Shown one piece after another: positions 652 to 17,270 of a stretch of 64,000 nt of DNA. Below the pieces are notes generated by a model. That model was not told the origin of the DNA and searched no databases. It was given only the letters and a program-made list of their open reading frames with translations. The stretch lies in contig NZ_LVYV01000056.1 in NCBI RefSeq assembly GCF_001618955.1, positions 1 to 64,000 of the forward strand. Direction: 5' to 3'. A program made the position numbers and the translations under genes. This DNA is from Tardiphaga robiniae (GTDB taxonomy: Bacteria > Pseudomonadota > Alphaproteobacteria > Rhizobiales > Xanthobacteraceae). Within the stretch, counting starts at the first letter, position 1, and every line of letters starts with the position of its first letter.

Positions 652-2238
652 TCACCCCCGCGGCTTCGGCGTGAACGGTCCCTTCGGCGCATTTCCGATC
701 AGCGACACGACGATCAGCGCCGCCATCGCGAACCAGAAAGTGAGCCAGAAGCCGTCGATATAGGCCAGCGTATTGGCCTCGCGCTGCACGAGACTTGCGA
801 GCGTGCCGATGCCGCGCGCTTGTGCGAGACCCTCACCATGGCTGGCGAAGCGCCCGGTGAGTTTGGCAAGAATGCCAACGACATCGGCATCGCCGCTGGC
901 GACATGCTGGCCGAGCAGATTGGAATGGATCTGCTCGCGCACGCGCAGCCAGGTGCCCATCAGCGCGATGCCGATCTCGGCGCCGCCGAGCCGGAAGACC
1001 TGGATATAGGCCGCAAAAGCCGTCGCGCGCGACGGATCGGAATTCGACAGCGCGATGATCACGATGGGCAGTAATGTGAAGCTTTGCCCGAGCGAATGCA
1101 GCAACACCATCGGGATGAAATCGCCGAGCGCCCATTCATGGGTAAGCTGCGTGCCGAGCAAGCCCGCAGCGGCAAAGGCGGCAAGGCCGATGATCAGCGT
1201 CAGCTTCACGTCGTAGTAGCGAATGAGCCAGATCGATAGCGGCACCAGCACAATCATCGGCACGACGGCATAGAGCAGAAACAACATGCCGGACTGTTCC
1301 GGCCGCAACAGCGCGATGTTGGTCAGGAAATTCGGCGCCAGCGACGAATTGGACAGGCTGGTCATGGTGTAGAGAATGATCGTCAGCAGCGCGAGGCCGA
1401 TATTGCGCGACAGCAGCACTTCGGCATGGGCCCATGGCCGCTTGACCAGCGACTCATTGATGAAGAAGCCGACCGTCAGGACCGTACCGCCTGACAGCAG
1501 CGCCACCACGGTGCCCGAGCCGAGCCAGTCCAGCCGGTTGCCCTGATCGAGCCCGGCATAGATCATCGCCATACCAGTGCCGAGCAAGAGCATGCCGCCC
1601 CAATCGGCCTCGCATAGAACGAACCGGTTAATCGGCTCGCGCGGTGTGCCGAGCCAGACGAACAGCGCGAGCAGCGGCGCGATGATGACGTCCTGCCAGA
1701 ACATCCACTGCCAGCCCAGATGATCGACATAGAAGCCGACCAGCGCGGTGCCGGAATTGAGCGAGAAGCCGACGCGAATGGAATAGATCGCAATGGCCGG
1801 TAGCCACCACTTCATCGGCAGATTGCGAAAGATGATCAGCAGCGTTGCCGGCACGAAGGTGCCGAGCAGCATGCCGTGCACGATGTTCAGCACCAGCAGC
1901 AGATTGTAGTCACGCACCAGCGGGATCATCAGCGAGATCGCCGCATAGACCAGAGCGGGAATGCCGAGCACGCGGCGCAGCCCGAACACGGTAGCCATCC
2001 AGGCCACCGCCGGCGCGATGAAGATCTGCGACGCGGTGCCGGCGGTGGAGAGCCACGCGCCTTCGTCGAAACTCAGCCCCAGCGCCCCGCGCAGATCGGC
2101 GAGGCCGATAGAGAAGATACGCGTATCGAAATTGGCGAGGAACGCGCCGAGCAGCACCGCGCCGACCGCAAAGATCGGATGGTGCGAAACGCCCCCGGTC
2201 GAGACCGGGCCGCTTTCGATGACCTTACTTTCCGCCAT
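652..2238 (-). CDS. emrB: MFS multidrug efflux permease, DHA2/EmrB family
   Basis: This 528-residue integral membrane protein is rich in hydrophobic segments throughout and is consistent with the 14-helix DHA2 drug:H+ antiporter family. The first helix carries the FDTRIFSIGL segment typical of this family, near residue 37, and a FGLRRVLG loop follows helix 2. Its length matches EmrB (about 510 residues). It would expel hydrophobic toxic compounds across the inner membrane, working with the adaptor encoded just upstream. The ATG overlaps the last 14 bases of emrA, so the two are translationally coupled. The exported substrate cannot be read from sequence; the neighbouring MarR gene suggests an inducible pump. 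Confidence 0.9.
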   Translation of the reverse strand: MAESKVIESGPVSTGGVSHHPIFAVGAVLLGAFLANFDTRIFSIGLADLRGALGLSFDEGAWLSTAGTASQIFIAPAVAWMATVFGLRRVLGIPALVYAAISLMIPLVRDYNLLLVLNIVHGMLLGTFVPATLLIIFRNLPMKWWLPAIAIYSIRVGFSLNSGTALVGFYVDHLGWQWMFWQDVIIAPLLALFVWLGTPREPINRFVLCEADWGGMLLLGTGMAMIYAGLDQGNRLDWLGSGTVVALLSGGTVLTVGFFINESLVKRPWAHAEVLLSRNIGLALLTIILYTMTSLSNSSLAPNFLTNIALLRPEQSGMLFLLYAVVPMIVLVPLSIWLIRYYDVKLTLIIGLAAFAAAGLLGTQLTHEWALGDFIPMVLLHSLGQSFTLLPIVIIALSNSDPSRATAFAAYIQVFRLGGAEIGIALMGTWLRVREQIHSNLLGQHVASGDADVVGILAKLTGRFASHGEGLAQARGIGTLASLVQREANTLAYIDGFWLTFWFAMAALIVVSLIGNAPKGPFTPKPRG

Positions 2239-3406
2239 TGCCGGCCGCCGGCGCGTCGGTGTTGATGCTGGCGGTTACCGACATGCCCGGCAGCAACCTG
2301 TCCAACAAGGGTTGCCCCTTGTCGAGCGTGATGCGGACCGGCACGCGCTGAACGACCTTGGTGAAGTTGCCGGTGGCGTTATCCGGCGGCAGCAAGGCGA
2401 ATTGCGATCCCGACGCCGGCGAAACCCGCTCGACGCGGCCGCGCAGGGTCTCCGCCGAGAACGTGTCGACCACGATATCGACGGGCTGACCGGGCTTGAC
2501 GCGCGTGAGCTGCGTTTCCTTGAAATTCGCGATCACATAGACGTCGGGCAGCGGCACGATGCTGATCAGGCTGGAGCCGATATTCACATAATCGCCCGGC
2601 TGCACCTGACGCTCGCTGACCACGCCATCGAAGGGCGCTACGATCTTCGTGTAACCAAGGCGCAGCCTGGCGGCATCCAGCGTCGCCTTGGCGCCGAGCA
2701 GATCGGCAGCGCGCTGCTTGCGTGTACCGGCAAGCACTTCGAGCTGATGTTTCTGCGCGGCGATGACCGCGCCGCTCGCCTTCACATCGGCCTGCGCCTT
2801 GGCATAGGCGGCGGTGGCCTGTTCGAAGCGCTGCCGCGTGCCGGCTTCGGTCTGCGTCAGCGAAGCCTGACGTTCCCGCTCCTGCTGCGCCTGCACTTCC
2901 ATCGCTTGCGCAGACACGCGCTGCGCCTCGGCCTGCGCGATGGTCGCGTATTGCAGTTCGACCTGGTTGGCGAGATTGTCCAGCGCCGCCTGCGCACCGG
3001 CCACGCCGGCTTCGGCCTGCGCCACTTGCGCCTCGTAATCCGCCGGATCGATCTGGATCAGGAGATCACCGGCTTTGACGTGCTGGAAGTCGCTGACGGC
3101 AACGGCCTTCACCGCACCGGCCACTCGACTCGACAGCCGCGTCGTCTGCGCGCGGATATAGGCATCGTTGGTGGTTTGCACCGCGCGGTTGCCCATCCAG
3201 ATGTCCCAGCGCGTGGTGGCCAGAATGATGAAGACAAGCGCGGCAACAACGGCCAGCAAGGGAATCGCAAGACGACGCCAAGCCTGCTGCGCTGGCGTCA
3301 GCGCCGCAGGCTGCGCGGGCGGTTGCGCAGCCGGTTGTGCCGGTGTCGGCGCAACCGGTTGCGGTGGTGCCGGCTGTGGCGTTGGGGATGCATCAAGCTG
3401 GGACAT
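2225..3406 (-). CDS. emrA: HlyD/EmrA-type membrane fusion protein
   Basis: The 393-residue periplasmic adaptor has a Pro/Ala/Gln-rich cytoplasmic tail of about 45 residues and one membrane helix near residues 48-66. It then has the lipoyl-like half-motif, a long alpha-helical hairpin (Ala/Gln/Glu-rich, about 130-240) and the second lipoyl/beta-barrel part containing APFDGVVSERQVQPGDYV. This is the domain order of EmrA. It should bridge the EmrB permease to an outer-membrane channel, which is not encoded in this window. The proline-rich N-terminal tail is longer than in the E. coli protein. It is first gene of the emrA-emrB pair and lies 126 bases downstream of a MarR gene on the same strand. 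Confidence 0.9.
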   Translation of the reverse strand: MSQLDASPTPQPAPPQPVAPTPAQPAAQPPAQPAALTPAQQAWRRLAIPLLAVVAALVFIILATTRWDIWMGNRAVQTTNDAYIRAQTTRLSSRVAGAVKAVAVSDFQHVKAGDLLIQIDPADYEAQVAQAEAGVAGAQAALDNLANQVELQYATIAQAEAQRVSAQAMEVQAQQERERQASLTQTEAGTRQRFEQATAAYAKAQADVKASGAVIAAQKHQLEVLAGTRKQRAADLLGAKATLDAARLRLGYTKIVAPFDGVVSERQVQPGDYVNIGSSLISIVPLPDVYVIANFKETQLTRVKPGQPVDIVVDTFSAETLRGRVERVSPASGSQFALLPPDNATGNFTKVVQRVPVRITLDKGQPLLDRLLPGMSVTASINTDAPAAGNGGK

Positions 3407-3429
3407 GTCTTCCTCGCAGCGACCTGAGT

Positions 3430-3440
3430 GACATTATGTC
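3430..3440. promoter_or_regulatory. Short dyad upstream of emrA
   Basis: GACAT-T-ATGTC is a perfect 5-1-5 palindrome 24 bases upstream of the emrA start, in the 126-base gap after the MarR gene. It does not resemble the 23-bp dyad found at the other MarR-linked promoters. It could be a separate operator or chance. Confidence 0.25.
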
Positions 3441-3532
3441 TCATGTCGTCGCACGCGATTCAATCGCCCGATATTGGCATTCCATACCGGTGCCGCAGCA
3501 TTCGGGTTCGATTCGTACCAAAGACCGCAGAT

Positions 3533-4213
3533 TTATATCTTTTTGCGGCGTGGGGGCCTGTCGCCGTCACGAGATGGCGCCGGAGTATCCAGACCGCGCG
3601 GCTGCAGATAGCGTTGCAGCGCAATGGCGCGCTCGCTGGATTCGACCAGGCGTTCGACGCTCCCCAGCAATTGATGAAATTCGTCCGCGTTGAGACAATC
3701 GAACTGCACGTCGTTGACCTGACGCTGCGTCGGATTGAGGCTTGTCAGCAGCGCATCCCCCGCCTGTGTCACCGTAAGACGCAGACGCCTGCGATCGGCG
3801 GGATCCACGAGCTTGTCGAGCAGGCCCATCTGCTGCAGCTTGTTGGAGACGGTGGTGACGAAAGCGCCGCTGAGATGCAGATGCGCCGCGAGTTCGCGCA
3901 CGCTGACATGGCCTTCAGCGGCCAGATATTTCACCGAGATCAGCACGGTGTATTCGATCCCGGCCAGGCCGATCGCGGCAGCGTGCCCCTCACGCACGGT
4001 CTCGTGTCGCGCCAGAAAGGCCAGCAGCGTATGCACGAGTTGCCGGAATGCATGATCGGAGCCATCGACCAGCAGCGCCTTGCGCGACGTGGTCAGTGCC
4101 GGCGCCGGAAGTTTTGCCTTGAGCGCGGTTTTGGCTCCCGCCTTCACCGCGGGCTTTTCGGATTTACGCAGTGCCGGCGTCCTGGAGAGCGGCGCAACCT
4201 TGGAACGAGACAT
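3533..4213 (-). CDS. MarR-family transcriptional regulator (copy 1)
   Basis: This 226-residue protein has a basic, Lys/Ala/Pro-rich N-terminal extension of about 45 residues, then a MarR winged helix. The recognition region reads VRELAAHLHLSGAFVTTVSNKL (split here between residues near 107 and 128), and the wing contains DRRRLRLTVT. A basic C-terminal tail follows. A GGGAAG ribosome binding site precedes the ATG. It is closely similar to the MarR protein at 8144-8830 from residue 45 to about 208, so the two are paralogues. It lies upstream of emrAB on the same strand and divergent from the AA_synth gene, with a candidate operator in between. Likely a ligand-responsive repressor; the ligand is unknown. 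Confidence 0.9.
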   Translation of the reverse strand: MSRSKVAPLSRTPALRKSEKPAVKAGAKTALKAKLPAPALTTSRKALLVDGSDHAFRQLVHTLLAFLARHETVREGHAAAIGLAGIEYTVLISVKYLAAEGHVSVRELAAHLHLSGAFVTTVSNKLQQMGLLDKLVDPADRRRLRLTVTQAGDALLTSLNPTQRQVNDVQFDCLNADEFHQLLGSVERLVESSERAIALQRYLQPRGLDTPAPSRDGDRPPRRKKI

Positions 4214-4278
4214 ACCGCTTCCCAGTGAACGATCGCTACAGGATTGGCTGGCGCTCCCTGCTTCGTCAAGCGATTCCG

Positions 4279-4301
4279 CATACCTTCTTAATGAAGCTAT
4301 T
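4279..4301. promoter_or_regulatory. Candidate MarR operator, site 1
   Basis: The left arm CATACCTTC and right arm GAAGCTATT are separated by TTAAT. This fits the dyad AATAGCTTC-5 bases-GAAGCTATT deduced from three sites in this window (others at 8005-8027 and 9080-9102). It lies between the divergent MarR gene (start at 4213) and the AA_synth gene (start at 4356), 55-66 bases from each, where a repressor could control both promoters. The right arm is a perfect match; the left arm matches in the six positions ATA-CTTC apart from one base, plus one further mismatch at the outer end. Confidence 0.65.
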
Positions 4302-4355
4302 GATCAAATGCATTTACTGGGTCAGGATCGGCGCCAAATCTGACGGGAGAACATC

Positions 4356-4937
4356 ATGAAACTCGATATCAGGCGCCTGCTCTGCTTCACCGACCACAAG
4401 GAGGTCGAGGCCGGCCATCGGCACGACCAGCCGCTGCGCCGCGTCGCCGCCGTGGCCATCGTCGCCAACCCCTATGCCGGACGCTATGTCGAAGACCTCT
4501 CCGAGGCAATTGCTGCCAGCGTCGAGGTCGGCGCCGTGCTGGCGAAGCTCGCCGTCGAGGCGATGGGATCGTACAAGGTCGAGAGCTACGGCAAGGGCGG
4601 CGTTGTCGGCCTCGGCGGCGAACTCGAACACGCCAATGCGATGCTGACCACGACTTTCGCCACGCCGCTGCGCGAGGCCGTGGGCGGCGCCGAAGCCTGG
4701 ATCCCCTCCTTCACCAAACTCGCCGCCCCCGGCTGCCTGATCGACGTTCCCCTGGCGCACAAGGACGCGCTCTATGTCCGCTCGCATTACGACGGCGTCT
4801 CGGTGACACTGCCGCCCGACGCGCCGGCGGCCGATGAAGTTGCGCTGATCGTCTGTCTCGCCAATCGCGGGCGCCTCAATGCGCGGGTCGGCGGGTTGAA
4901 TGCCAGGGATATCGGCGGCAAGGACGGCTTGCGCTAG
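4356..4937 (+). CDS. AA_synth-family protein (DUF1185)
   Basis: The 193-residue soluble protein matches what I know of the PF06684 'amino acid synthesis' family. It has an N-terminal RRLLCFTDHKEVEAGH stretch, a conserved VAIVANPYAGRYVEDLS segment, a Gly-rich GKGGVVGLGGELEHANAM region and a C-terminal ALIVCLANRGRLNARVGGL segment. It has no signal peptide or membrane segment. The family name is historical and no reaction is established to my knowledge. The ATG is 50 bases upstream of the amidohydrolase gene's coding start when measured from its stop, so the two probably form one transcript starting at the 4279-4301 operator. Confidence 0.85.
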   Translation: MKLDIRRLLCFTDHKEVEAGHRHDQPLRRVAAVAIVANPYAGRYVEDLSEAIAASVEVGAVLAKLAVEAMGSYKVESYGKGGVVGLGGELEHANAMLTTTFATPLREAVGGAEAWIPSFTKLAAPGCLIDVPLAHKDALYVRSHYDGVSVTLPPDAPAADEVALIVCLANRGRLNARVGGLNARDIGGKDGLR

Positions 4938-4986
4938 GCTGCGGTTTTGTGCGGCCTTGGACGGCCTTGAGATTGCGGAGACGGGT

Positions 4987-6186
4987 ATGAAAACGGCCAT
5001 CGTCAATATCGGCACCATCGTCACCGGTGATCTCAAAGCGCCATTCGCCGACGGCGATGGCATCCTGATGCAGGACGGGCGCATCAGCGCGATCGGCACG
5101 CTGTCATCGGACCAGGTCTCATCGGCCGATGTGGTGATCGATGCCGCCGGCACCACGGCGATCCCCGGCCTGATCGACAGCCACGTCCACATCACCTTCG
5201 GCGATTACACGCCAAGGCAGCGCGTGGTCGGTTATCTCGAAAGCTACGTGCATGGCGGCACGACGACGTCGATCACGGCGTCCGAGGTGCACACGCCGGG
5301 CCGCCCGAAGGATCCGGCCGGGGTGAAGGCGCTGGCGCTGGCGGCGCGAGCCTGTTTCCTCGACTATCGCCCCGGCGGCATGCGCGTGCATGCCGGCTCG
5401 ATTATCCTTGAGCCGGGACTGACAGAGGCCGATCTGGAAGAACTGGTGAAGGCCGGTCTATGGCTCGCCAAGGCCGGCTTCGGCGCATTCGAGACACCGT
5501 TCGACTATGCGCCCTTGATGCTCGCCGCACGCAAGCTCGGCATGGTCACCACCATGCATACGGGCGGCTCATCGATCCCCGGCTCGTCGGGCATCTGGGC
5601 CGAACATGTGCTGAAATCGAATCCGAACGTCTCATTCCACGTCAATGGCGGACCGGTGGCGATGCCGGAAGCCGGCTTCGCGCGGCTGGTCAACGAAAGC
5701 GACATCGCGCTGCAGCTCTGCACTGCCGGCAATCTGCGCACCGCGCTGCTGACGGCGAAACTGCTCGACGACGCCAAACAGCCGGAGCGCCTGCTGATCG
5801 CGACCGACACGCCGACCGGCAGCGGGATCATGCCGCTCGGCATGTTCTACACCATCAGCCATCTCGCCAGCCTAGGCGGCATGCCGCCCGAACAGGCGAT
5901 CGCGGCGGCGACGGGCAACAATGCAACGGTCTATCGGCTGAACAGCGGTTTCCTGAAACCCGGCAAGGATGCCGATGTGGTGCTGATCGACGCGTGTGCG
6001 GGTGGTTCGCAGGACAATGCGCTGTCAGCGCTTGTGAATGGCGACGTACCGGCGGTCAGCGCCGTGATCACCGACAGCGTGCCGCGCTTCGTCGGCCGCA
6101 GCCGCAACACGCCGGCGGGTATGCGGAATGTCTGCGTGGCGGAGACGAAGCTGCCGCGGGATTTCTCGGGTGCTGCGGCGCATTGA
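4987..6186 (+). CDS. Metal-dependent amidohydrolase, enamidase/imidazolonepropionase-like
   Basis: This 399-residue amidohydrolase-superfamily enzyme has the metal-binding SHVHITFGD motif (His66, His68) after a small N-terminal beta domain. Further candidate ligands are the His in TTMHTGGSS (about 183) and in SFHVNGG (about 214), and the Asp in IATDTPTGSG (about 278). A C-terminal LKPGKDADVVLID segment closes the composite beta domain. The arrangement resembles enamidase of nicotinate fermentation more than urease or hydantoinase; there is no carboxylated-lysine motif. It should hydrolyse a cyclic or enamine-type C-N bond. The ATG at 4987 with upstream CGGAG is preferred over an open frame beginning at 4900, which would overlap the AA_synth gene. 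Confidence 0.85.
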   Translation: MKTAIVNIGTIVTGDLKAPFADGDGILMQDGRISAIGTLSSDQVSSADVVIDAAGTTAIPGLIDSHVHITFGDYTPRQRVVGYLESYVHGGTTTSITASEVHTPGRPKDPAGVKALALAARACFLDYRPGGMRVHAGSIILEPGLTEADLEELVKAGLWLAKAGFGAFETPFDYAPLMLAARKLGMVTTMHTGGSSIPGSSGIWAEHVLKSNPNVSFHVNGGPVAMPEAGFARLVNESDIALQLCTAGNLRTALLTAKLLDDAKQPERLLIATDTPTGSGIMPLGMFYTISHLASLGGMPPEQAIAAATGNNATVYRLNSGFLKPGKDADVVLIDACAGGSQDNALSALVNGDVPAVSAVITDSVPRFVGRSRNTPAGMRNVCVAETKLPRDFSGAAAH

Positions 6187-6221
6187 TCGGGATTGCAGGG
6201 AAGCAGCGGCACGCACCGTAG

Positions 6222-6434
6222 GCTCCCTCTCCCCGTTCCCAGCGAAGCGAAGCTTCGCAAGGCGGGGAGAGGGTTGGGGTGAGGGGCGAGGCAACATATC
6301 CGCCGCATTTGATCCCCCACAGATCGGCACGTTCTCCGAACTGCACATACTGCGCTTGCGTTGAACACCGAGAATGCCCCTCACCCGCCGCGAAGAGGCG
6401 GCGACCTCTCCCCGCAAAGCGCGGGGAGAGGTTA
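6222..6434. repeat. Inverted pair of G+C-rich repeat elements
   Basis: Bases 6222-6293 and 6377-6434 are two related elements in opposite orientation. Each contains an internal hairpin (for example CTCTCCCCG with CGGGGAGAG) followed by a 'gggtgaggggcga' tail or its complement. The same arrangement recurs at 17271-17462, 23861-24008 and 26308-26460. The pair fills the gap between two convergent genes (amidohydrolase and HpaB-like oxygenase). Likely a REP-like element that may double as a bidirectional terminator. Confidence 0.85.
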
Positions 6435-6450
6435 AGGAAGTGGCCGTGTC

Positions 6451-7956
6451 CTACTTCGCGCCAAACTCCGGCAAATCATACTTCGCCGTCATCTTCTCGG
6501 CCATGCCGCCCGCCCGCTCCCAGTCATAGGTGCGGTAGCTGTGGCCGCGGGTGACGAACTGGGCGCCGGCATAGAACATCTCATATTGCAGATGGCGCGA
6601 GGCGAATTCGGAGCCGACGGCGTCCCAGGTCAGCTTCAAGAGCTTGACGCGGTCCTGCCCCGACATCGCCGGCGAGATCTGCGTCAGCGCAATGATGTCC
6701 GCGATCTCGGGATTTGAGAAATCATCCACCGACGATGGCAGCATCAACAGTGCACCGCCGGCGAGTTCACGGATGGCGCTGATGATCTGCGGATACATCT
6801 CCTGCGATTGTACCTGCGCCGCATAGAGCAGATGCTTGTTCGGCAGGAAGTAATCGCCGCGCATCGCGCCGCCGGCTTCCATGCCGAGCACCATGCCCTC
6901 GATCAGCGCCGCCTGCGAGGCGAGCTTGCCGAGCACATCCACCACCGGCGGGAAATTGATGGTACCGATGGTCTTTGCGATGCCGCGGGCAAGGCCGACC
7001 AGGAAGCGCAGCTTCACCGAGAGGCGGATCTGCGCCTGATAGTTCTGATAGACGTGAGCCGGAGTATCATGGAGCTGGGCGCGGCACATGTCGGTGTTGC
7101 GGAGCAGGAACACGCGCTCCCACGGCACCTTCACGTCGTCGAAGAACACCAGCGCGTCGTTCTCGTCATAGCGATAGGCCAGCGGGTTGTCGTACTCGTT
7201 CGGTGCATGCGCTTCGAAACTCTTGCGTGACAGCATCTTGAGGCCCGGCGTATTCATCGGCAGCGCGCAGGAGAAAGCCAGATGCTCCTCGCCCAGCCGC
7301 AGCGGCTGGCCGGAGCCGACGAAGATCTCGTTGGCCATGATGGCTGACGTGGCGAACAGTTTGGCGCCGCGGATGGTGACGCCCGACGCATCCTCGTCGA
7401 CGATGCGCGCGACCATGTCCTGCGCATTCTTGCCCTGATCGCCGAACGCCTTGGAGCGATCGCCCTGCACATTGTTGATCACATAGGTCAGGAACAGGTC
7501 GCTCTTGCGGGCGTAGTCGTACCAGTCGCGGAACGCCTGCGCGCGTTTCGGATCGTAATTGTCGAACACCTCGATGCCCATCATCATGCCGGACATGGAT
7601 GAGGCGACGTGATCGGGCGAGCGGCCGAGGAAGCCGCCAGACAGTTCGGCCCATTCCACCAGCGCCTTGCGGCGCTCGACCAGTTCCGCGTAGCTGGTCG
7701 GCAATTGCCAGGCGCGATTGACGCGGCGGCCGCCACCGATATCGAAGGTCATGCGTTCGATATTGGCGGGGTCGGCCTGATAGTCATACAACGCGCCGGC
7801 CGAGGCGACTGCATGGCGATAGGCCGGATGGGTCGAGACGTCGTCGACCTTCTTGCCGTCGAGATAGACCGCACGACCGTCGCGCACAGCGGCGACATGC
7901 TGGGCGCCGTTCTTGACGCCGGCAACTGTCGCCCCGGATCCAAATGCCTTGTTCAT
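6451..7956 (-). CDS. HpaB-family flavin-dependent oxygenase component
   Basis: This 501-residue protein has the two-domain layout of 4-hydroxyphenylacetate 3-monooxygenase large subunits (acyl-CoA-dehydrogenase-like fold). It shows YRHAVASAGALYDYQAD early, a central DEDASGVTIRGAKLFATSA strand region, VPWERVFLLRN, and a C-terminal YEMFYAG segment. Family members use FADH2 supplied by a separate reductase (HpaC type) to hydroxylate phenols, pyrroles or related rings. No reductase gene is present in this window. The ATG at 7956 is preceded by GGAGAAG; a GTG one codon earlier is also possible. It is transcribed from the operator region at 8005-8027 and is convergent with the amidohydrolase gene. 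Confidence 0.88.
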   Translation of the reverse strand: MNKAFGSGATVAGVKNGAQHVAAVRDGRAVYLDGKKVDDVSTHPAYRHAVASAGALYDYQADPANIERMTFDIGGGRRVNRAWQLPTSYAELVERRKALVEWAELSGGFLGRSPDHVASSMSGMMMGIEVFDNYDPKRAQAFRDWYDYARKSDLFLTYVINNVQGDRSKAFGDQGKNAQDMVARIVDEDASGVTIRGAKLFATSAIMANEIFVGSGQPLRLGEEHLAFSCALPMNTPGLKMLSRKSFEAHAPNEYDNPLAYRYDENDALVFFDDVKVPWERVFLLRNTDMCRAQLHDTPAHVYQNYQAQIRLSVKLRFLVGLARGIAKTIGTINFPPVVDVLGKLASQAALIEGMVLGMEAGGAMRGDYFLPNKHLLYAAQVQSQEMYPQIISAIRELAGGALLMLPSSVDDFSNPEIADIIALTQISPAMSGQDRVKLLKLTWDAVGSEFASRHLQYEMFYAGAQFVTRGHSYRTYDWERAGGMAEKMTAKYDLPEFGAK

Positions 7957-8004
7957 CACTCTTCTCCGTCACTTGCTGCCGGCCGCGTGCCGGTCATCAC
8001 TATT

Positions 8005-8027
8005 AATAGCTATCATCCGAAGCTATT
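8005..8027. promoter_or_regulatory. Candidate MarR operator, site 2
   Basis: The arms AATAGCTAT and GAAGCTATT are separated by CATCC. The outer seven bases AATAGCT and AGCTATT form a perfect inverted repeat. The site lies 49 bases upstream of the oxygenase start and about 117 bases upstream of the divergent MarR gene's start. It shares length, spacing and right arm with the sites at 4279-4301 and 9080-9102. Confidence 0.7.
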
Positions 8028-8143
8028 TTGAAACCGTTGTCAAGCGGACCTGTAGCATTCGGGGTCCTGCGTCGTTTGTCGTGATTGCAATTGCGCTGCG
8101 AAGCCGCCAAGCTCGGGCAAGTTTTAATACATGGGATCATCAC

Positions 8144-8830
8144 GTGGCCAAATCCGCAGCGCGCTCCACTTCGATCGGCAAATCAGTAACTAGCAAGTCA
8201 GTTGGCAAGGAGATCAGCAAGAAGCCTGCCACAGGCCGGCCGGCGTCCCGCGCTGCATTGACGGTCTCCCGTCCGGAGCTGCTGGTGGACGGCTCGGACG
8301 CCCAGTTCCGCCGCCTCGTCCACAGCCTGTTCGGCTTTCTGGTCCGCCATCAGACCTTGCGCGAAGGTCACGCCGCCGTCATCGGCCTCGCCGGCATCGA
8401 ATACACGACCTTGATCTCGATCCGGCATCTGTCGGCGCAAGGCGACGTCCATGTGCGCGCCGTCGCCGATCACCTGCATCTGAGCGGCGCCTTCGTCACC
8501 ACCGTGACCAACAAGCTCGAAACCAAAGGGCTGATCACCAAGACCTCGCACACCGGCGACCGCCGCCGCATCAGCCTCGTGGTGACACCGCATGGCGCCG
8601 AGCTGCTGGAGCGACTGGCGCCCACGCAGGCCCAGGTGAACGACGTCCAGTTCGGTTGCCTCGGCACCCGGGAATTCCACCAGTTGCTGGACATGGTGCA
8701 GCGGCTCGTCGATTCCAGCGACCGCGCCATTGCGTTGCAGCGTTATCTGGCCGACACCAATGTGAAGCAGCTCTCCCCCGAAGCGCAATCGATCGCCGTC
8801 GCCAAGCGCGGCAAGCCGCGCAAGGGCTGA
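8144..8830 (+). CDS. MarR-family transcriptional regulator (copy 2)
   Basis: This 228-residue regulator starts with a basic Ser/Lys/Arg-rich extension, then the same core as the regulator at 3533-4213. Shared stretches include LLVDGSD, REGHAA-IGLAGIEYT, HLHLSGAFVTTV-NKL, DRRR in the wing and QVNDVQF near the C-terminus. I chose the GTG at 8144. The frame stays open upstream to 7913, but that extension covers the intergenic operator region and overlaps the divergent oxygenase gene's start. It probably controls the divergent oxygenase gene and itself through the dyad at 8005-8027, and perhaps the importer downstream. Which paralogue binds which site cannot be told from sequence. Confidence 0.88.
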   Translation: MAKSAARSTSIGKSVTSKSVGKEISKKPATGRPASRAALTVSRPELLVDGSDAQFRRLVHSLFGFLVRHQTLREGHAAVIGLAGIEYTTLISIRHLSAQGDVHVRAVADHLHLSGAFVTTVTNKLETKGLITKTSHTGDRRRISLVVTPHGAELLERLAPTQAQVNDVQFGCLGTREFHQLLDMVQRLVDSSDRAIALQRYLADTNVKQLSPEAQSIAVAKRGKPRKG

Positions 8831-9278
8831 ATCCTGCCTGCAATCTGACCCGTGTCAGGACCGGCGGTTGCACCCGGCCAAGGCCCCCGAGATAGCCACA
8901 GCCCGCGTCGCCATTGCTGCGACAAAACGGCACCGGGGAGCGCAGCCCCCGCCCGCCCAAGGGCGACGCGGGAATCAGCCGCGACGCGCCCGCAACATTC
9001 AAACACCCGTGAAACAGGCAGTTGCGCGCATTCCCGCCAGCTTCGAATTGCTGCATTTCCGGGCCGCACTGCCGCATAAATTAGCTTCTTAAGAGAACTA
9101 TTTTATAAAGATACTCAGAATGACGATTGTCAAAGCCTGAAATTTATTGGACGATCCGACCAACGCTGTCATTCCGCTGTCACAGCTGGCGATGGCACAT
9201 GGCGTGCATAGAAATCTTTATCTGGATTGTGCTGCGGATGACCGCAGCAAAAGCATCAGCAGAAGAGGACGATCGTCG
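8831..9278. other. Intergenic region upstream of the Liv importer
   Basis: This 448-base gap holds no convincing gene. Bases 8831-9060 are GC-rich with only spurious frames, while 9070-9140 is markedly A/T-rich and contains the third MarR-type dyad. The promoter for livKHMGF is expected near 9080-9200. An AGAAGAGGA ribosome binding site lies at 9261-9269. Confidence 0.6.
9080..9102. promoter_or_regulatory. Candidate MarR operator, site 3
   Basis: The arms ATTAGCTTC and AGAACTATT are separated by TTAAG. Compared with site 1 without gaps, 16 of 21 bases from 9082 to 9102 are identical. It lies 177 bases upstream of livK in an A/T-rich patch that also has the look of a promoter (TTTTATAAAG follows immediately). 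Confidence 0.6.
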
Positions 9279-10505
9279 ATGTCACGGATCAAATCGAATT
9301 TGCCGCGCGTATTGGGTACAGTTGCCGCCGTCACGCTTTCCGCCATGGTTGGCGGTCAGGCATGGGCGCAGGAGATCGCCATCGGCGCGGTGGTGCCGAG
9401 CTCCGGTCCGTTCGCCGAGTGGGGCCGCAGCAACACCGTGACGCTGAAGATGCTGGAACAGCAGACCAACGATGCCGGCGGCATCAATGGCGCGAAGCTG
9501 AAGATCACCATTCTCGACGACGCTGCCAAGCCGGCGCAAGCCGCAAGCTCGCTGCGCAAACTGGCCGGCGACGAAAAGGTTCTTGCCGTGGCCGGCCCGC
9601 TGACCTCGAGCGCCGCCGAAGTGACCTTCCCGGTCGCCAATGAAATGAAGGTGGTCTCCACCTCGCAGGCCTCCTCGAAGCCGGGCGTGGCGAAGCTCAA
9701 CCGTCCCTGGGCATTCCGCAACACCATCGACGAAGGCGTTCTCGCCAAGACCACCGTGCCTTTCTACAAGAAGGCCTTCAACATCAAGACCGTCGCCGTG
9801 ATCTTCGACGCCAAGGACGCCACGGCTTCCACCGTCGGCAAGGTGATCATGCCGGCTGTGCTGAAGGCCAATGACATCATCGTCGCCAACGAGAACGATC
9901 TGCTGTCGTTCAACACCGGCGACCTCGACGTGTCCGCACAGGTCACCAAGCTGAAGGCCCTCAACCCCGACGGCGTCGTTGTCAGCGCCGATTACAGCCA
10001 GGCCATCACCGTGCTGCGCGAGATGAAGCGCCAGGGTCTGATCAAACCGGTCGTCGGTGCCACCCAGCTGATCTCGTCAGCGATTCTCAAGGCTGCCCCG
10101 GAAATCCCGGTGATCGCACCCGCGACCTTCTACGCCACCATGACAGGCCCGGCACCCGAGAAATTCACGGCCACCCTGACACCGCTGCTGCGCAAGGAAT
10201 CCGGCCTGCCGAAGGACATCGAGCCCAGCATGTATGACGCCAACATCTACGAGATCGTCTCGATGTATATCGACGCGATCAAGAAGACCGGCGTCACCGG
10301 CAAGCCGGCCGATCTCGAAGCCGACCGCACCAAGATCCGCGATCATCTCGCCAAGCTCGAAGGCTTCGCCGGTCTCGGCGGCCCGATCGGCTTCAATGAC
10401 GATGGCGACGCGATCAAGGCCTTCTATGTGCTGCAGGGCCAGAACGGCGCCTGGAACACCAAGGTCAAGGGTTGCAGCTCGGCGCCCGGCCACCCGGCCT
10501 GCTGA
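9279..10505 (+). CDS. livK: Branched-chain-type ABC importer, periplasmic binding protein
   Basis: The 408-residue precursor has a signal peptide of about 30 residues ending in AWAQ, then a type I periplasmic-binding fold of the LivJ/LivK/AmiC class. Typical features are IAIGAVVPSSGPFAEWG at the start, the NDAGGINGAKL segment and the VAGPLTSSAA loop of the ligand pocket. The ATG at 9279 has a good AGAAGAGGA site; upstream in-frame codons would remove the signal peptide from the N-terminus. It is first gene of livKHMGF. Ligands of this family range from amino acids to aromatic acids and amides. The shared operator with the oxygenase and amidohydrolase genes suggests it brings in their substrate. 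Confidence 0.9.
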   Translation: MSRIKSNLPRVLGTVAAVTLSAMVGGQAWAQEIAIGAVVPSSGPFAEWGRSNTVTLKMLEQQTNDAGGINGAKLKITILDDAAKPAQAASSLRKLAGDEKVLAVAGPLTSSAAEVTFPVANEMKVVSTSQASSKPGVAKLNRPWAFRNTIDEGVLAKTTVPFYKKAFNIKTVAVIFDAKDATASTVGKVIMPAVLKANDIIVANENDLLSFNTGDLDVSAQVTKLKALNPDGVVVSADYSQAITVLREMKRQGLIKPVVGATQLISSAILKAAPEIPVIAPATFYATMTGPAPEKFTATLTPLLRKESGLPKDIEPSMYDANIYEIVSMYIDAIKKTGVTGKPADLEADRTKIRDHLAKLEGFAGLGGPIGFNDDGDAIKAFYVLQGQNGAWNTKVKGCSSAPGHPAC

Positions 10506-10525
10506 TCTCTCACATTATCCACGCC

Positions 10526-10554
10526 GCTGCGGCCGGGAAGTCCTCCCGGCCGCA
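10526..10554 (+). terminator. Stem-loop between livK and livH
   Basis: CTGCGGCCGGGA and its exact complement form a 12-bp stem around a 5-base loop (AGTCC), starting 20 bases after the livK stop. There is no T run, so it is more likely an mRNA-stabilising or partial-termination hairpin that keeps the binding protein more abundant than the membrane components. Confidence 0.6.
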
Positions 10555-10594
10555 GTCATGATGACGACCACCTGATTTAACGATTGCGATTCCC

Positions 10595-11473
10595 ATGCTG
10601 ATACAGCAACTCGTCAACGGCCTGACGCTCGGAGCGGTCTATACGCTGCTGGCGCTGTCGTTCTCGCTCGTGATGGGCATTCTCGGCATTCTCAATCTCG
10701 CGATTGCCGAACTCTTCATGATCGGCGGCTATCTCGGCTTCACGCTGATCACCGCAGGCTTCCCGCTTCCGGTCGCCGTGCTCGGCGGCATGCTCGGCGC
10801 AGCCGTGATCGCCATCGCCATCGAGAAGATCGGCTACCAGCCGCTGCGCGACGCGCCGCTGGTGACGCCGATGCTGTCGACGCTGGGTTTCTCGATCATC
10901 CTGCAGAACGTCGCCACCAACATCTGGGGCTCGGATCCTGCCCAGCTCCCCGACGAGTATTTCGGCAAGCAATATGCGCTCGGCCCGGTCAATATCGGCG
11001 AGATGCAGCTGATCGTTCTCGTCGCCACCGTCGTGCTGGTCGCACTGGTTGCTTATATCGTGCAGAAGACCCCGATGGGCCGCGCGCTGCGCGCCGTAGC
11101 CGAGAACCGCGAAGTCGCAAGAATCCTGGGCGTCTCCGCTGACCGCCTGACCATGCTGGCCTTCATCCTGTCGGGCTCGCTCGCCGGCGTTGCCGGCGTG
11201 TTGATCGCGCTGCATTACGGCACCATCACGCCCTATCTCGGCGTCGAGATCGGCCTCAAGGCCATCGCCGTGATGGTGATCGGCGGCACCCGCCAGATCT
11301 GGGGCGCGCTGGTCGCAGGTCCCTTGATCGGCATCGCCGAAGTGCTGACTGTCGCTTACGGCGGCTCTCAGGTCCGCGACTTCGTCGTCTACGGCTTCAT
11401 GATTTTGATTTTGTTGCTGCGTCCGCAAGGCCTGCTCGGCGGCGCACGATCCGATCAGGGGCAGCGCGTCTGA
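10595..11473 (+). CDS. livH: Branched-chain-type ABC importer permease LivH
   Basis: This 292-residue inner-membrane permease has about eight hydrophobic helices. It begins with LIQQLVNGLTLGAVYTLLALS, a hallmark start of LivH proteins, and carries GRALRAVAENREVARILGV, the cytoplasmic coupling loop that contacts the ATPases. The stop codon overlaps the livM start (TGATG). With LivM it forms the heterodimeric channel. Confidence 0.93.
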   Translation: MLIQQLVNGLTLGAVYTLLALSFSLVMGILGILNLAIAELFMIGGYLGFTLITAGFPLPVAVLGGMLGAAVIAIAIEKIGYQPLRDAPLVTPMLSTLGFSIILQNVATNIWGSDPAQLPDEYFGKQYALGPVNIGEMQLIVLVATVVLVALVAYIVQKTPMGRALRAVAENREVARILGVSADRLTMLAFILSGSLAGVAGVLIALHYGTITPYLGVEIGLKAIAVMVIGGTRQIWGALVAGPLIGIAEVLTVAYGGSQVRDFVVYGFMILILLLRPQGLLGGARSDQGQRV

Positions 11474-12309
11474 TGTCGACCTATTATGCAAGCCTGCTCG
11501 CCGAGTCCGGCATTCTCCTGCTCGGCGCGCTCAGCGTCTATATCATCCTCGCCACGGGCCAGCTCTCGCTCGGCAATGGCGCCTTCATGGGAATCGGCGC
11601 TTACCTGTCATCTTACCTCACCGTCGCGCTGAACGTGCCGCTGACACTCGCCTTGCTGATCTCGGCGATCGCCGCCGGCATCATCGGCGCCATCGTCGCC
11701 TTCCCTGCTTTGAGGTTAAAAGGCATCTATCTCGCCATGGCCACCGTCGGCTTCGGCGAAATGGTGCGCAGCTTCTTCCTCAATTTCGACGCCATGGGCG
11801 GCTCCGGCGGCTATCGCGGCATGCAGCACATTTCGGTTGGCTATGTCTGGCTGTGGGCCGGCGGCATCCTGATCGCCGTGATGCTGCTGGAGCGCTCGCG
11901 CGTCTGGCTGGAAATGCAGGCTGTCCATGATGACGAGACCGCAGCGGGCCTGATCGGACTCAACACCACCGTGACCAAGATCGGCGCCTTCGGTGTCGGC
12001 GCCGCGGTGGCCGCCATCTCCGGCGGATTGTTCGCGCATCACAACGTCTATATCGAGCCGGCGAATTTCGGCTTCGATCGCTCGATCGAATTCGTGCTGG
12101 CCGTGATCCTCGGCGGATCCACTGTCGGACCGGGCTCGCTGGTCGGCTCATTGCTGCTGGTGTTCCTGCCTGAATTCCTGCGTCCGATCGCCGACTGGCG
12201 CCTCGCCGCCTTCGGCACGCTACTGATTGTTGTGCTGCTGGTACGGCGTCAGGGCATTCTCGATCGTTCGCTGATCCGAACGCTCACCTTCCGGAGGGCC
12301 GCGGCATGA
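11473..12309 (+). CDS. livM: Branched-chain-type ABC importer permease LivM
   Basis: The 278-residue inner-membrane permease of the LivM family shows the early LATGQLSLGNGAFMGIGAY segment, the RLKGIYLAMATVGFGEM motif and a C-terminal FVLAVILGGSTVGPGSLVG stretch. It is somewhat shorter than E. coli LivM, which has an extra N-terminal region; this is usual in alphaproteobacteria. It overlaps livG by four bases (ATGA). Confidence 0.92.
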   Translation: MSTYYASLLAESGILLLGALSVYIILATGQLSLGNGAFMGIGAYLSSYLTVALNVPLTLALLISAIAAGIIGAIVAFPALRLKGIYLAMATVGFGEMVRSFFLNFDAMGGSGGYRGMQHISVGYVWLWAGGILIAVMLLERSRVWLEMQAVHDDETAAGLIGLNTTVTKIGAFGVGAAVAAISGGLFAHHNVYIEPANFGFDRSIEFVLAVILGGSTVGPGSLVGSLLLVFLPEFLRPIADWRLAAFGTLLIVVLLVRRQGILDRSLIRTLTFRRAAA

Positions 12310-13058
12310 GCAACGCGCTGCTTCAACTCACCGGCGTCACCAAGACGTTCGGCGGCATCCATGCGCTGTCCGGCATGGTCTGCGAAGTGCCGGAAGGCAA
12401 GATCGTCGGCGTGATCGGGCCCAACGGCGCCGGCAAGACGACACTGTTCAACACCATCACCGGCGCCTATCGCGCCGATGCCGGCGAAGTCAAACTCAAG
12501 GGCGTCGACGTCACGCAGTGGCCATCCTATCGCATCGTCCGCGAAGGCATCGCCCGCACCTTCCAGAATATCCGGCTGTTCGGCAGCATGACGGTGTGGG
12601 AACATCTGCTGGTGGCGCAGCCGCACAGCGAAAGCGCATGGCGGCGTCTGCTGCCGATCTCCTGGGCCAATCCGGCGGCGCAGGCCCGCGCCGAGGAAGT
12701 GATGGCGTTCTTCGGTCTCACCGAACTGCGCGACCGCCCCGCGAAATCCCTGCCCTACGGCATCCAGCGCAAGGTGGAAATGGCGCGCGCCGTCACCGCG
12801 AAGCCGAAGCTGCTGCTGCTCGATGAGCCCGTCGCCGGCATGAACCATGACGAGGCCGAGGAGATCCGCGCGCTGATGATCCGCTTGCGCGACACCGGCC
12901 TCACCATTCTCCTGATCGAACACGACATGAATTTCGTGATGCGGCTCTGCGACTATCTCTATGTCCTCGATTTCGGCGTGCTGATCGCCGAAGGCAAGCC
13001 CGAGGAAGTCCGCGCCAACCCGGTCGTCCTCGACGCCTATCTCGGAAAGGACAACTGA
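12306..13058 (+). CDS. livG: Branched-chain-type ABC importer ATPase LivG
   Basis: The 250-residue ATPase has Walker A GPNGAGKTT near residue 40, the LivG-typical RTFQNIRLFGSMTV Q-loop region, a signature loop LPYGIQRKVEMARA (YG in place of the common GG, usual for LivG) and Walker B LLLLDEPVAGMN. The switch His is in LLIEHDMNFV. It powers uptake together with LivF. Start and stop overlap the neighbouring genes. Confidence 0.93.
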   Translation: MSNALLQLTGVTKTFGGIHALSGMVCEVPEGKIVGVIGPNGAGKTTLFNTITGAYRADAGEVKLKGVDVTQWPSYRIVREGIARTFQNIRLFGSMTVWEHLLVAQPHSESAWRRLLPISWANPAAQARAEEVMAFFGLTELRDRPAKSLPYGIQRKVEMARAVTAKPKLLLLDEPVAGMNHDEAEEIRALMIRLRDTGLTILLIEHDMNFVMRLCDYLYVLDFGVLIAEGKPEEVRANPVVLDAYLGKDN

Positions 13059-13765
13059 TGCTCACGATCCGTGGTCTGCAGGTCCGCTACGGCGCCATCA
13101 CGGCCTTGCGCGGCGTCGATCTCGACATCAAGCAGGGCGAGATCGTAGCGCTGCTGGGCGCCAATGGCGCCGGCAAGAGCACGATTGCACGGTCCATCGC
13201 CGGGCTTCTGCCGTTCCAGGGCGACATCACCTATCAGGGCGAGAAGCTCGTGCCGAATGCCGCCGAGAAGAATCTCCGCCGCGGCATCGCGCTGGTGCCG
13301 GAAGGCCGCGGCATTCTCGCCCGCATGACGGTCTATGAAAATCTGCTGATGGGTATCTACACCCGATCGGACAAATCCGAAGCGATGGCCGATGTCGCCA
13401 AGATGCTGGAACGCTTCCCGATCCTCGGCAAGCGCCGCGACGGTCTCGCCAGCCTGTTGTCGGGCGGCGAACAGCAGATGCTGGCCATCGGACGTGCACT
13501 GCTGTCGAAGCCGAAGCTGCTGCTGCTGGACGAGCCGTCGCTCGGTCTCGCGCCTCTGATGACCGACACGCTGTTCAAGATGATCGCCCAGTTCCGTGAC
13601 GAAGGACTCACCGTGCTGCTGGTCGAGCAGAAGGCACGGCAGACGCTGAAGATCGTCGACCGGGCCTATCTGCTGGAAACTGGCCGCGTCGTGACCTCAG
13701 GCACGGCGCAGGCGCTGATCGACGATCCGACGGTGTCCGATGCGTTTTTGGGTGGGACGCATTAA
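13058..13765 (+). CDS. livF: Branched-chain-type ABC importer ATPase LivF
   Basis: This 235-residue ATPase has Walker A GANGAGKST, the LivF-typical IALVPEGRGILARMTVYENL segment, signature LSGGEQQMLAIGRAL and Walker B LLLLDEPSLGLAP. It overlaps livG by one base and ends two bases before the inverted-repeat element at 13767. It is last gene of the importer operon. Confidence 0.93.
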   Translation: MLTIRGLQVRYGAITALRGVDLDIKQGEIVALLGANGAGKSTIARSIAGLLPFQGDITYQGEKLVPNAAEKNLRRGIALVPEGRGILARMTVYENLLMGIYTRSDKSEAMADVAKMLERFPILGKRRDGLASLLSGGEQQMLAIGRALLSKPKLLLLDEPSLGLAPLMTDTLFKMIAQFRDEGLTVLLVEQKARQTLKIVDRAYLLETGRVVTSGTAQALIDDPTVSDAFLGGTH

Positions 13766-13766
13766 C

Positions 13767-13898
13767 TCGTCATTCCGGGGCGCGTGCGGCGCCAGCCGCA
13801 TGCGAACCCGGAACCTCAAACTAGTTGAAACTCCGGGGAGCCAAGCCACTCTGAGGTTCCGGGTTCGCTCACCTGCGGTGAGCGCCCCGGAATGACGA
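13767..13898. repeat. Long inverted-repeat element, copy 2
   Basis: The outer arms are the same as in the copy at 494-635 (TCGTCATTCCGGGGCGC and complement). The inner arms share the gaacccggaa core; the loop differs. It occupies the whole gap between the convergent livF and aldolase genes, so it is well placed to terminate both transcripts. Confidence 0.85.
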
Positions 13899-13906
13899 GC
13901 GCGTGG

Positions 13907-15022
13907 CTACGCCCCATACCGCGCCAGCACCGGCCAGGTCTCCACGCCATTATTATGCCCGACCACATGATACGCCGCGTGCAAATTCACCGTCGGATCG
14001 CAATGCGTCGTCAGCAGCAGCACGCGGCTGCCGAGCTTCGGCGCCTCAGCACCATCAGGCATGGTGATCATGCCATGCTCGTCGCCGCCGAAGCGATAGG
14101 TCGAACCTTCCGGCACACCTAACATCAGCGACGGCACCGGCCCGTTGAAGGCCATCGCCTTGACGCCGGCATCGACGGTGAATTCGCCGGCACGATTCAC
14201 CGACGTGACCGTCGCAAGAATGAACAAACTTGGATCGTAAGGCAGCGCACCACCCTCGTGCTCCAACTTGCCGTAGTCGGAATCCATGAACACGTAGGAA
14301 CCGACCTGCAGCTCCGTAAAGGTGCCCGTGACATCATAGGCGCAAGCGCCCGTGCCGCTGCCGGTGACGATCTCCGCCTTGACGCCGGCTTCCGCCAGCA
14401 CGTGCAGATGCTCATCGAGCATGGCGCGCACGCGCGCAGCACCCGCCCTGCGTTCCTGGGCATCGATCATGTGCTGCACATGACCGGCAAAGCCCTGGAT
14501 GCCGCCGAATGTCATGCCCGGCGTGGCGTCGATCAGTTGCGCCAGCGCAAGTGTCGATGCTGTGTCAACGATACCGGTGCGGCGCTGGCCGACATCGATA
14601 TCGATCAGCACCTGTAGCGGACGGCTGCCGGCATCGAGCAATTCATGCAGCACGTGAATCTGGTCGGCGTGATCGACGACGATACTGATATCGGATTGGT
14701 CGGCGACAGCGGCCAGACGCGCGAGCTTCGGTCGGTCGGCCACCGGCGTGGTCAGCAGCAGCCCTGTGATACCGGCCTGCGCAAAGGCCTCGATCTCGGC
14801 GACCGTCGCACAGGAGATACCCACCGCTCCCGCTTCGATCTGCAACTGCGCAATGCGCGTCGACTTGTGGGTCTTGGCATGCGGGCGAAGCGCAACGCCA
14901 TTCGCTTTGGCGAACTCTGCCATGGCAGTGATGTTGCGCTGAAGGGCCGAGGCATCCAGCACCAGCGCAGGCGTCTGGATATCCGCGAAGGCCGGCAGAT
15001 TGGGATCGAGCATGTTTGGCAT
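13907..15022 (-). CDS. D-threonine aldolase-like PLP enzyme (DSD1/alanine racemase N-terminal fold)
   Basis: This 371-residue enzyme has the fold-type III PLP barrel with RPHAKTHKS near residues 46-54, whose first Lys should bind PLP. The C-terminal beta domain contains TTHCDPTVNLH, the metal-binding His/Cys pair of D-threonine aldolase and D-serine dehydratase relatives. Expected reactions are cleavage of a D-beta-hydroxy-amino acid to glycine plus aldehyde, or a related D-specific step. The ATG at 15022 shares a base with the hydantoinase stop (TGATG), so the two are translationally coupled. This placement fits a D-amino acid released by the hydantoinase route. Aldolase versus dehydratase cannot be separated by eye. 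Confidence 0.85.
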   Translation of the reverse strand: MPNMLDPNLPAFADIQTPALVLDASALQRNITAMAEFAKANGVALRPHAKTHKSTRIAQLQIEAGAVGISCATVAEIEAFAQAGITGLLLTTPVADRPKLARLAAVADQSDISIVVDHADQIHVLHELLDAGSRPLQVLIDIDVGQRRTGIVDTASTLALAQLIDATPGMTFGGIQGFAGHVQHMIDAQERRAGAARVRAMLDEHLHVLAEAGVKAEIVTGSGTGACAYDVTGTFTELQVGSYVFMDSDYGKLEHEGGALPYDPSLFILATVTSVNRAGEFTVDAGVKAMAFNGPVPSLMLGVPEGSTYRFGGDEHGMITMPDGAEAPKLGSRVLLLTTHCDPTVNLHAAYHVVGHNNGVETWPVLARYGA

Positions 15023-17247: not shown

Positions 17248-17270
17248 GTCTTTCACTCCGGCGGGAATGC

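What the first reader, a model, noticed from the sequence alone, without database searches (positions are those of the whole stretch)
4279..9102. One 23-bp dyad at three promoters defines a MarR regulon
Sites at 4279-4301, 8005-8027 and 9080-9102 each fit AATAGCTTC-5 bases-GAAGCTATT (mismatches in one or both arms). They lie before the AA_synth-amidohydrolase pair, between the oxygenase and MarR copy 2, and before livKHMGF, and also beside MarR copy 1. This ties an importer, an oxygenase and a ring-opening-type amidohydrolase into one inducible pathway, probably for a nitrogen heterocycle or cyclic amide.
Basis: partly seen in the sequence, partly recalled or inferred. Interest (0 to 1): 0.75.

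Follow-up and report, generated by a model that had tools for sequence, protein, structure and literature searches.

The report
MarR operator network for N-heterocycle breakdown
A short mirror-image DNA sequence found at three promoters is very probably the landing site of two related MarR switch proteins that control an importer, an oxygenase and a ring-opening enzyme pair; the switch is of a common type, but the degradation pathway it controls appears to be undescribed.

Summary
The three dyads exist as described: two differ from AATAGCTTC-N5-GAAGCTATT at 2 of 18 positions, the livK one at 4. They behave as a conserved operator. In 71 loci of more distant relatives the core TAGCT-N9-AGCTA (<=1 mismatch) occurs 27 times in 37 kb upstream of module genes and 10 times in 1.13 Mb elsewhere; 59 permuted half-sites average 0.9 upstream. 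It is seen in 20 of the 71 loci. The sites persist between Tardiphaga and Bradyrhizobium while surrounding DNA diverges (weakest at AA_synth). In the 6.36-Mb genome the two best matches are both here. The amidohydrolase is close to enamidase, which opens a cyclic enamide. HpaB, AA_synth, enamidase, MarR and Liv-importer genes recur together (26 of 79 loci). AA_synth-enamidase pairs also sit beside other hydroxylases and, twice, succinate-semialdehyde dehydrogenase, which fits oxidation of an N-heterocycle to a lactam followed by hydrolysis. Binding, inducer and substrate are inferred. The regulator type is ordinary; ten literature searches gave no description of the pathway.

The parts
4279..4301 (.). 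Dyad 1 (operator), between divergent MarR1 and AA_synth-enamidase
   Evidence: 2 of 18 mismatches; present in 3 Tardiphaga loci at 16 of 18 and, with one weak arm, in Bradyrhizobium
8005..8027 (.). Dyad 2 (operator), between divergent HpaB oxygenase and MarR2
   Evidence: 2 of 18 mismatches; 16 of 18 arm columns invariant in 9 Tardiphaga/Bradyrhizobium sequences against 85 of 277 other columns
9080..9102 (.). Dyad 3 (operator), upstream of livKHMGF
   Evidence: 4 of 18 mismatches; 16 of 18 arm columns invariant against 106 of 277 others
8038..8043 (-). Probable -35 element TTGACA of the HpaB promoter, 10 bases before dyad 2, so that the dyad would cover the spacer and -10 region
   Evidence: TTGACA present in 9 of 9 aligned sequences; read by eye, the consensus scan did not report a promoter here
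3533..4213 (-). MarR1
   Evidence: Pfam MarR_2/MarR; 63% identical to MarR2 over 175 residues
4356..4937 (+). AA_synth (DUF1185) protein
   Evidence: PF06684 214 bits; PDB 2qtp and 3byq
4987..6186 (+). Enamidase-like amidohydrolase
   Evidence: 2vun 340 bits over residues 2-380
6451..7956 (-). HpaB-family FADH2-dependent monooxygenase (HpaB1)
   Evidence: PF11794 and PF03241; below the NCBIfam HpaB equivalog cut-offs
8144..8830 (+). MarR2
   Evidence: Pfam MarR; start codon not certain
9279..13765 (+). livKHMGF: Liv-type ABC importer
   Evidence: Peripla_BP_6, two BPD_transp_2 permeases and two ABC_tran ATPases
652..3406 (-). HlyD-family and MFS efflux genes behind MarR1, same direction
   Evidence: Pfam HlyD_3 and MFS_1; same order in L008-L010, not found in L011-L014 and L025

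Best explanation
The dyad is the operator of a small family of MarR regulators (MarR1 and MarR2, 63% identical, nearly the same recognition helix). At rest a MarR dimer sits on the dyad and blocks the promoters of MarR2/HpaB, MarR1-efflux/AA_synth-enamidase and livKHMGF; an imported substrate or an intermediate releases it. The enzymes then work in sequence: the Liv importer takes up the compound, the HpaB-type flavin monooxygenase hydroxylates an N-heteroaromatic next to the ring nitrogen to give a cyclic enamide (lactam), and the enamidase homologue, with AA_synth as partner, opens the ring and frees ammonia, leaving a semialdehyde or keto acid. Reduced flavin probably comes from a reductase in an unlinked locus that carries a sister dyad and a third MarR. 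Shown: the sites, their rarity and conservation, the gene families and their clustering. Inferred: who binds, repression rather than activation, the order of reactions, the substrate class (a pyrrole-type compound is my favourite single guess, perhaps 0.15).
For: Sites and rarity. Footprint in relatives: (only spacing 9 stands out: 27 upstream hits; spacings 6-8 and 10-13 give 0-1; spacing 5 gives 6, of which those I listed largely overlap the same sites). Of the 10 hits elsewhere, several precede further pathway genes: flavin reductase (L026, L045), amidase (L026), Liv permease genes (L072, L079). Five genomes of the genus hold both 2-mismatch sites, and the same five hold HpaB1 at >=96% identity. 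Gene clustering: Enam, AAsyn, MarR and LivK all present in 26 of 79 loci, 21 of 50 with both flanks over 6 kb; a compact MarR-HpaB-AAsyn-Enam run in L058. Unlinked sister locus with dyad, flavin reductase and HpaB2. Enamidase similarity with matching HxH, MHTGG, H(I/V)NGG and DxPxG stretches. SSADH in Falsochrobactrum (655 bits, cut-off 646) and Mesorhizobium pWSM4875 (674 bits) beside the enzyme pair. Alternative hydroxylases beside the pair: FAD_binding_3 on A. vitis pAt, molybdenum hydroxylases on pWSM4875 and a Sulfitobacter plasmid.
Against: 51 of 71 distant loci have no upstream core dyad at <=1 mismatch, so other clades use another site or regulator; plasmid relatives have GntR genes instead. 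Dyad 3 is weak (4 mismatches) and lies 177-199 bases before the livK start. In Bradyrhizobium only one arm of the AA_synth site is kept (12 of 18 arm columns; 28 of 277 windows as conserved). G016 has HpaB1 but no second oxygenase match at E<=1e-120, so the unlinked locus is not indispensable. On the Shinella plasmid the enzyme pair has no oxygenase in the listed genes (that table is incomplete). The consensus promoter scan found nothing at the dyads.
Confidence: 0.65

Rival explanations
1. Same operator and regulators, but the MarR proteins activate, or one of the two (MarR1) only controls the efflux genes as an EmrR/MprA-like detox switch while MarR2 controls catabolism.
For: Dyad 1 is centred about 45 bases before a start point inferred by eye, a place where activators can also act; dyad 3 lies far upstream of livK; MarR1 is followed by HlyD and MFS genes in the same direction.
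Against: MarR1 and MarR2 have nearly the same recognition helix (LSGAFVTTV(S/T)NKL) and the same type of site; dyad 2 sits right behind a conserved TTGACA.
Confidence: 0.25
2. The pathway is for a phenolic or other aromatic acid, as in classic HpaB systems, and the enamidase-like protein acts on something other than a ring nitrogen compound.
For: HpaB-family enzymes mostly hydroxylate phenols (PDB matches are 4-HPA, chlorophenol and nitrophenol enzymes); Bradyrhizobium loci add a UbiD decarboxylase and a TctC transporter gene.
Against: P0003 is far below the HpaB equivalog cut-offs (274 of 885 and 273 of 480 bits); the enamidase match is uniquely strong; molybdenum hydroxylases, amidases and SSADH accompany the module or its enzyme pair.
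Confidence: 0.2
3. The dyads are the site of an unrelated regulator, and the MarR genes are neighbours only.
For: No binding was measured; 3 of 4 exact core places were examined outside the dyad-2 site and two of them (C34, C6) have no MarR gene in the ORFs I listed.
Against: The dyad lies beside MarR genes in many lineages and in the unlinked third MarR locus, and its sub-type roughly follows the MarR clade.
Confidence: 0.07
4. Chance similarity of three AT-rich promoter patches.
For: Dyad 3 alone is not unusual genome-wide.
Against: 81-fold enrichment in other species with permuted-motif and spacing controls.
Confidence: 0.01

Closest known systems
MarR-family catabolic repressors (HpaR, CouR and similar)
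   Same: Winged-helix regulator divergent from an oxygenase gene, near-palindromic operator in the shared promoter; CouR known to me here from a search listing and abstract.
   Different: Far below the HpaR cut-off (38 and 26 of 121 bits); two paralogues at one cluster plus a third elsewhere; operator TAGCT-N9-AGCTA; targets not described in the papers found.
Enamidase of nicotinate fermentation (Eubacterium barkeri, PDB 2vun)
   Same: 340-bit full-length match and shared histidine and aspartate stretches. Reaction (6-oxo-tetrahydronicotinate to ammonia and 2-formylglutarate) as stated in passages of PMC7356986.
   Different: Beside a flavin monooxygenase and AA_synth in an aerobic-type setting, under MarR control.
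HpaB/HpaC two-component flavin monooxygenases, including pyrrole-2-carboxylate monooxygenase (group D, listed in passages of PMC6165268)
   Same: HpaB_N and HpaB domains; a flavin reductase gene in the sister locus.
   Different: Not an HpaB equivalog; no reductase among the 16 cluster products scanned. Sequence of the pyrrole enzyme was not available to compare.
4-hydroxypyridine kpi cluster of Arthrobacter sp. IN13 (passages of PMC7356986)
   Same: Flavin monooxygenase followed by an amidohydrolase-superfamily protein (28% identical to enamidase in that paper) that opens the ring.
   Different: Its monooxygenase is Pfam01494, not HpaB; its KpiC is a dioxygenase.

Membership tests
MarR regulon | Winged-helix MarR domain in the candidate regulators | tested here: met
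   PF01047/PF12802 above cut-off for MarR1 and MarR2 and MarR3
MarR regulon | Near-palindromic operator at the regulator's own and its target promoters, conserved in relatives | tested here: met
   present in 20 of 71 distant loci
MarR regulon | Binding of the operator and release by a ligand | not testable with these tools
   Needs purified protein
HpaR (NCBIfam TIGR02337) | Score above the curated cut-off of 121.2 bits | tested here: not met
   MarR2 38.0 and MarR1 25.6 bits
Enamidase | Full-length similarity to solved enamidase with its metal-site stretches | tested here: met
   340 bits, residues 2-380; HxH, MHTGG, H(V)NGG, D-x-P-x-G aligned. That these are the metal ligands is recalled
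Enamidase | Hydrolysis of a cyclic enamide | not testable with these tools
   Needs enzyme assay
4-hydroxyphenylacetate 3-monooxygenase (HpaB equivalogs TIGR02309/TIGR02310) | Score above curated cut-off | tested here: not met
   273 of 480.2 and 274.4 of 885.2 bits; it is of the HpaB superfamily by Pfam
Two-component flavin monooxygenase | Flavin reductase partner encoded with the oxygenase | tested here: inconclusive
   None among 16 scanned products of the cluster; one in the unlinked dyad locus; adjacent in some relatives such as L015
Hydantoin-utilisation cluster next door (13907-18427) | Shares the dyad, so belongs to the same regulon | tested here: not met
   Only the three sites of the finding fall in the window at <=1 core mismatch
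Barbiturase / RidA-like fold for AA_synth | Clear structural match | tested here: inconclusive

The most novel reading that the evidence does not exclude
An undescribed aerobic route for nitrogen heterocycles, common in Alphaproteobacteria, in which an HpaB-type monooxygenase makes a cyclic enamide that an AA_synth-enamidase pair opens (giving AA_synth/DUF1185, a family without known function, its first role), under a family of MarR regulators whose paralogues and operators have diverged together (TAGCTTC against TAGCTTT half-sites) and which jointly serve two unlinked oxygenase loci.
Probability: 0.4. Interest if true: 0.62.

Novelty: new member of a known kind. Interest (0 to 1): 0.45.

Why it matters
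It gives a testable operator and regulator set for a gene module that recurs in many soil and water Alphaproteobacteria but bears only generic annotations ('amidohydrolase family protein', 'amino acid synthesis family protein'). It would give a function to DUF1185/AA_synth, extend enamidase chemistry from an anaerobic fermentation to aerobic catabolism, and provide a natural set of paired MarR recognition helices and operator sub-types.

Tried and rejected
Substrate by literature: ten full-text searches gave no paper describing this gene set; the library lacks most subscription papers. 'Xanthobacter tagetidis' with 'pyrrole' gave 0 papers, so my recollection that this species grows on pyrrole-2-carboxylate stays a recollection, and its locus L024 has a MarR and HpaB1 relative but no enamidase or AA_synth hit in the stretch held.

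Hydantoinase genes as part of the regulon: rejected, no dyad. Further genome dyads as regulon members: C34:320466 (82 bp from an ORF that looks like a TonB-dependent receptor by eye; the site is kept in G016), C6:30804 (near a porin-like ORF by eye) and G010:C1:4292518 were looked at and no pathway gene was recognised among the ORFs listed; left open.

A strict regulator-operator code: MarR3-type helices (TIEINKL) go with TAGCTTT-N5-AAAGCTA and MarR1/2-type (TTV(S/T)NKL) with TAGCTTC in most cases, but L019, of the MarR2 side, has a TAGCTTT-type site, and many members of other clades had no clear site, so I keep it as a tendency.

A UbiD decarboxylase in the window's genome: none found, though the tool warns that an empty answer without a positive control shows little. 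UbiD with an upstream dyad is seen in Bradyrhizobium L013, L014 and L025; L012 has the dyad but I did not call its UbiD gene. Its best PDB match 6h6v (312 bits) is, from memory, furandicarboxylate decarboxylase HmfF.

A first version of the enrichment count (26 per 34,352 bp against 11 per 1,128,889 bp) had an index offset; one search replaces it. Shuffle test: 72 of 228 upstream regions had a best dyad reached by at most 2 of 200 shuffles; regions scoring under 13 of 18 were not shuffled, and close relatives are included.
Full report
Observation. The three dyads are at the stated coordinates. Against AATAGCTTC-N5-GAAGCTATT the first two have 2 mismatches of 18, the third 4.

Specificity in the genome. 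The window lies in a 6.36-Mb genome of 56 contigs. Its genus is inferred to be Tardiphaga: the same-genus genome G009 has a 223,092-base contig with the cluster, the length of the Tardiphaga robiniae contig of L008. The 18-letter pattern at <=3 mismatches has 3 places in the genome: dyads 2 and 1 (2 mismatches each) and C34:320466 (3 mismatches); the control has 2. The 14-letter pattern TAGCTTC-N5-GAAGCTA has 6 places at <=2 mismatches, three of them dyads 1 and 2 and a place beside a third MarR gene; at <=3 it has 115 against 375 for the control, so loose matches are no evidence. The core TAGCT-N9-AGCTA has 4 exact places and 32 at <=1 mismatch, all three dyads among them.

Conservation. Of 237 relatives of the oxygenase found, the best 80 were kept as 79 loci. 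In three Tardiphaga-group loci (L008-L010) and five Bradyrhizobium loci (L011-L014, L025) dyads stand at the matching places. In nine aligned upstream sequences the arms are invariant at 16 of 18 columns for the HpaB site (other columns 85 of 277), 16 of 18 for livK (106 of 277) and 12 of 18 for AA_synth (47 of 277); the last is the weakest, with one arm degraded in Bradyrhizobium. Leaving those eight loci out, 71 loci hold 27 core dyads in 37,491 bp upstream of HpaB, MarR, AA_synth, enamidase and LivK genes and 10 in 1,125,750 bp elsewhere, about 81-fold; 59 permuted half-sites give a mean of 0.9 and a maximum of 5 upstream, and spacings other than 9 give 0-1, apart from 6 at spacing 5, which are mostly the same places in another register. 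The hits come from 20 of 71 loci. Of the 10 hits elsewhere, two precede genes of the flavin-reductase cluster (L026, L045), one an amidase (L026), two Liv permease genes (L072, L079) and one a luciferase-like monooxygenase beside a MarR gene (L016); two more, in L055, include the same site sequence as in L045.

In a search of 61 related genomes the 18-letter pattern with 2 mismatches occurs in seven: five of the 18 genomes of the genus, each with both sites, and two others with one site each. The five are the five that hold HpaB1 at >=96% identity in a family-wide search of 149 genomes.

A wider network. MarR3 (C1:1146907-1147488) is divergent from a flavin reductase, a second HpaB (57% identical to the first) and a cupin-like protein, and between them stands TATAGCTTTGTTATAAAGCTAAT. 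No flavin reductase was found among the 16 products of 652-18427 that I scanned, so the sister locus may supply the reduced flavin; but G016 has HpaB1 without a second HpaB match at E<=1e-120. In Bradyrhizobium the two loci stand side by side, and L013, L014 and L025 have a further dyad before a UbiD decarboxylase gene. MarR3-type proteins mostly pair with TAGCTTT sites and MarR1/2-type with TAGCTTC, with at least one exception, L019. MarR1 is followed by HlyD and MFS genes in the same direction, an arrangement shared by L008-L010.

Function. The amidohydrolase matches solved enamidase 2vun with 340 bits, the next entry with 32. Enamidase hydrolyses 6-oxo-1,4,5,6-tetrahydronicotinate to ammonia and 2-formylglutarate (passages of PMC7356986). 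The oxygenase is of the HpaB superfamily but below the HpaB equivalog cut-offs; a known group-D member acts on pyrrole-2-carboxylate (table in PMC6165268, passages). Among the 79 loci 39 have an enamidase, 37 an AA_synth, 32 both, 51 a MarR, 43 a LivK relative, 26 all four (matches over 60 bits to the window proteins, so distant LivK paralogues count). L058 has MarR-HpaB-AA_synth-enamidase in one run. L026 has, in order, AA_synth, enamidase, an SSADH-subfamily dehydrogenase, a member of the flavin-reductase cluster, HpaB and an amidase. On plasmids the pair AA_synth-enamidase (69-73% identity) stands beside an FAD_binding_3 monooxygenase (A. vitis), and beside SSADH and a molybdenum hydroxylase (Mesorhizobium); a 42% relative stands beside a molybdenum hydroxylase and two AA_synth genes (Sulfitobacter); a Shinella plasmid shows no oxygenase in its listed genes. 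Different hydroxylases with the same pair fit the idea that the hydroxylase makes a lactam and the pair opens it.

Mechanism. A TTGACA is present in 9 of 9 sequences 10 bases before dyad 2, so a bound dimer would cover the -10 region; this is read by eye and the consensus scan did not list it. I take repression relieved by ligand as most likely. The AA_synth fold is known only from two structures without function.

Verdict. The regulator type is ordinary; the pathway seems undescribed in the library I could search. Interest 0.45.

Noticed in passing
652-4213: MarR1 is followed in the same direction by HlyD and MFS genes, an EmrAB-like efflux set seen in Tardiphaga loci but not in the Bradyrhizobium loci.
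   Followed up: partly
13907-18427: Hydantoin-type genes next door (D-threonine-aldolase-like, hydantoinase passing the PRK13404 and D-hydantoinase cut-offs, Asp/Glu/hydantoin racemase, carbon-nitrogen hydrolase) without the dyad.
   Followed up: partly
L092 8467-8489 (own genome C34:320466-320488): A dyad AATAGCTCTAAAGCAAAGCTATT 82 bp from an ORF that looks like a TonB-dependent receptor; kept in G016.
   Followed up: partly
3533-4213 and 8144-8830: MarR1 and MarR2 have lysine- and alanine-rich N-terminal tails of about 40 residues before the MarR domain.
   Followed up: no
L131 887-7953 (Sulfitobacter plasmid): Two adjacent AA_synth genes with a UPF0280 protein, an unassigned 495-residue protein and a molybdenum hydroxylase beside an enamidase relative.
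   Followed up: partly
L087 10755-11135; cluster of 21 loci: A 126-residue cupin-like protein (below the Pfam cut-off, no PDB sequence match) recurs beside HpaB and flavin reductase genes.
   Followed up: no
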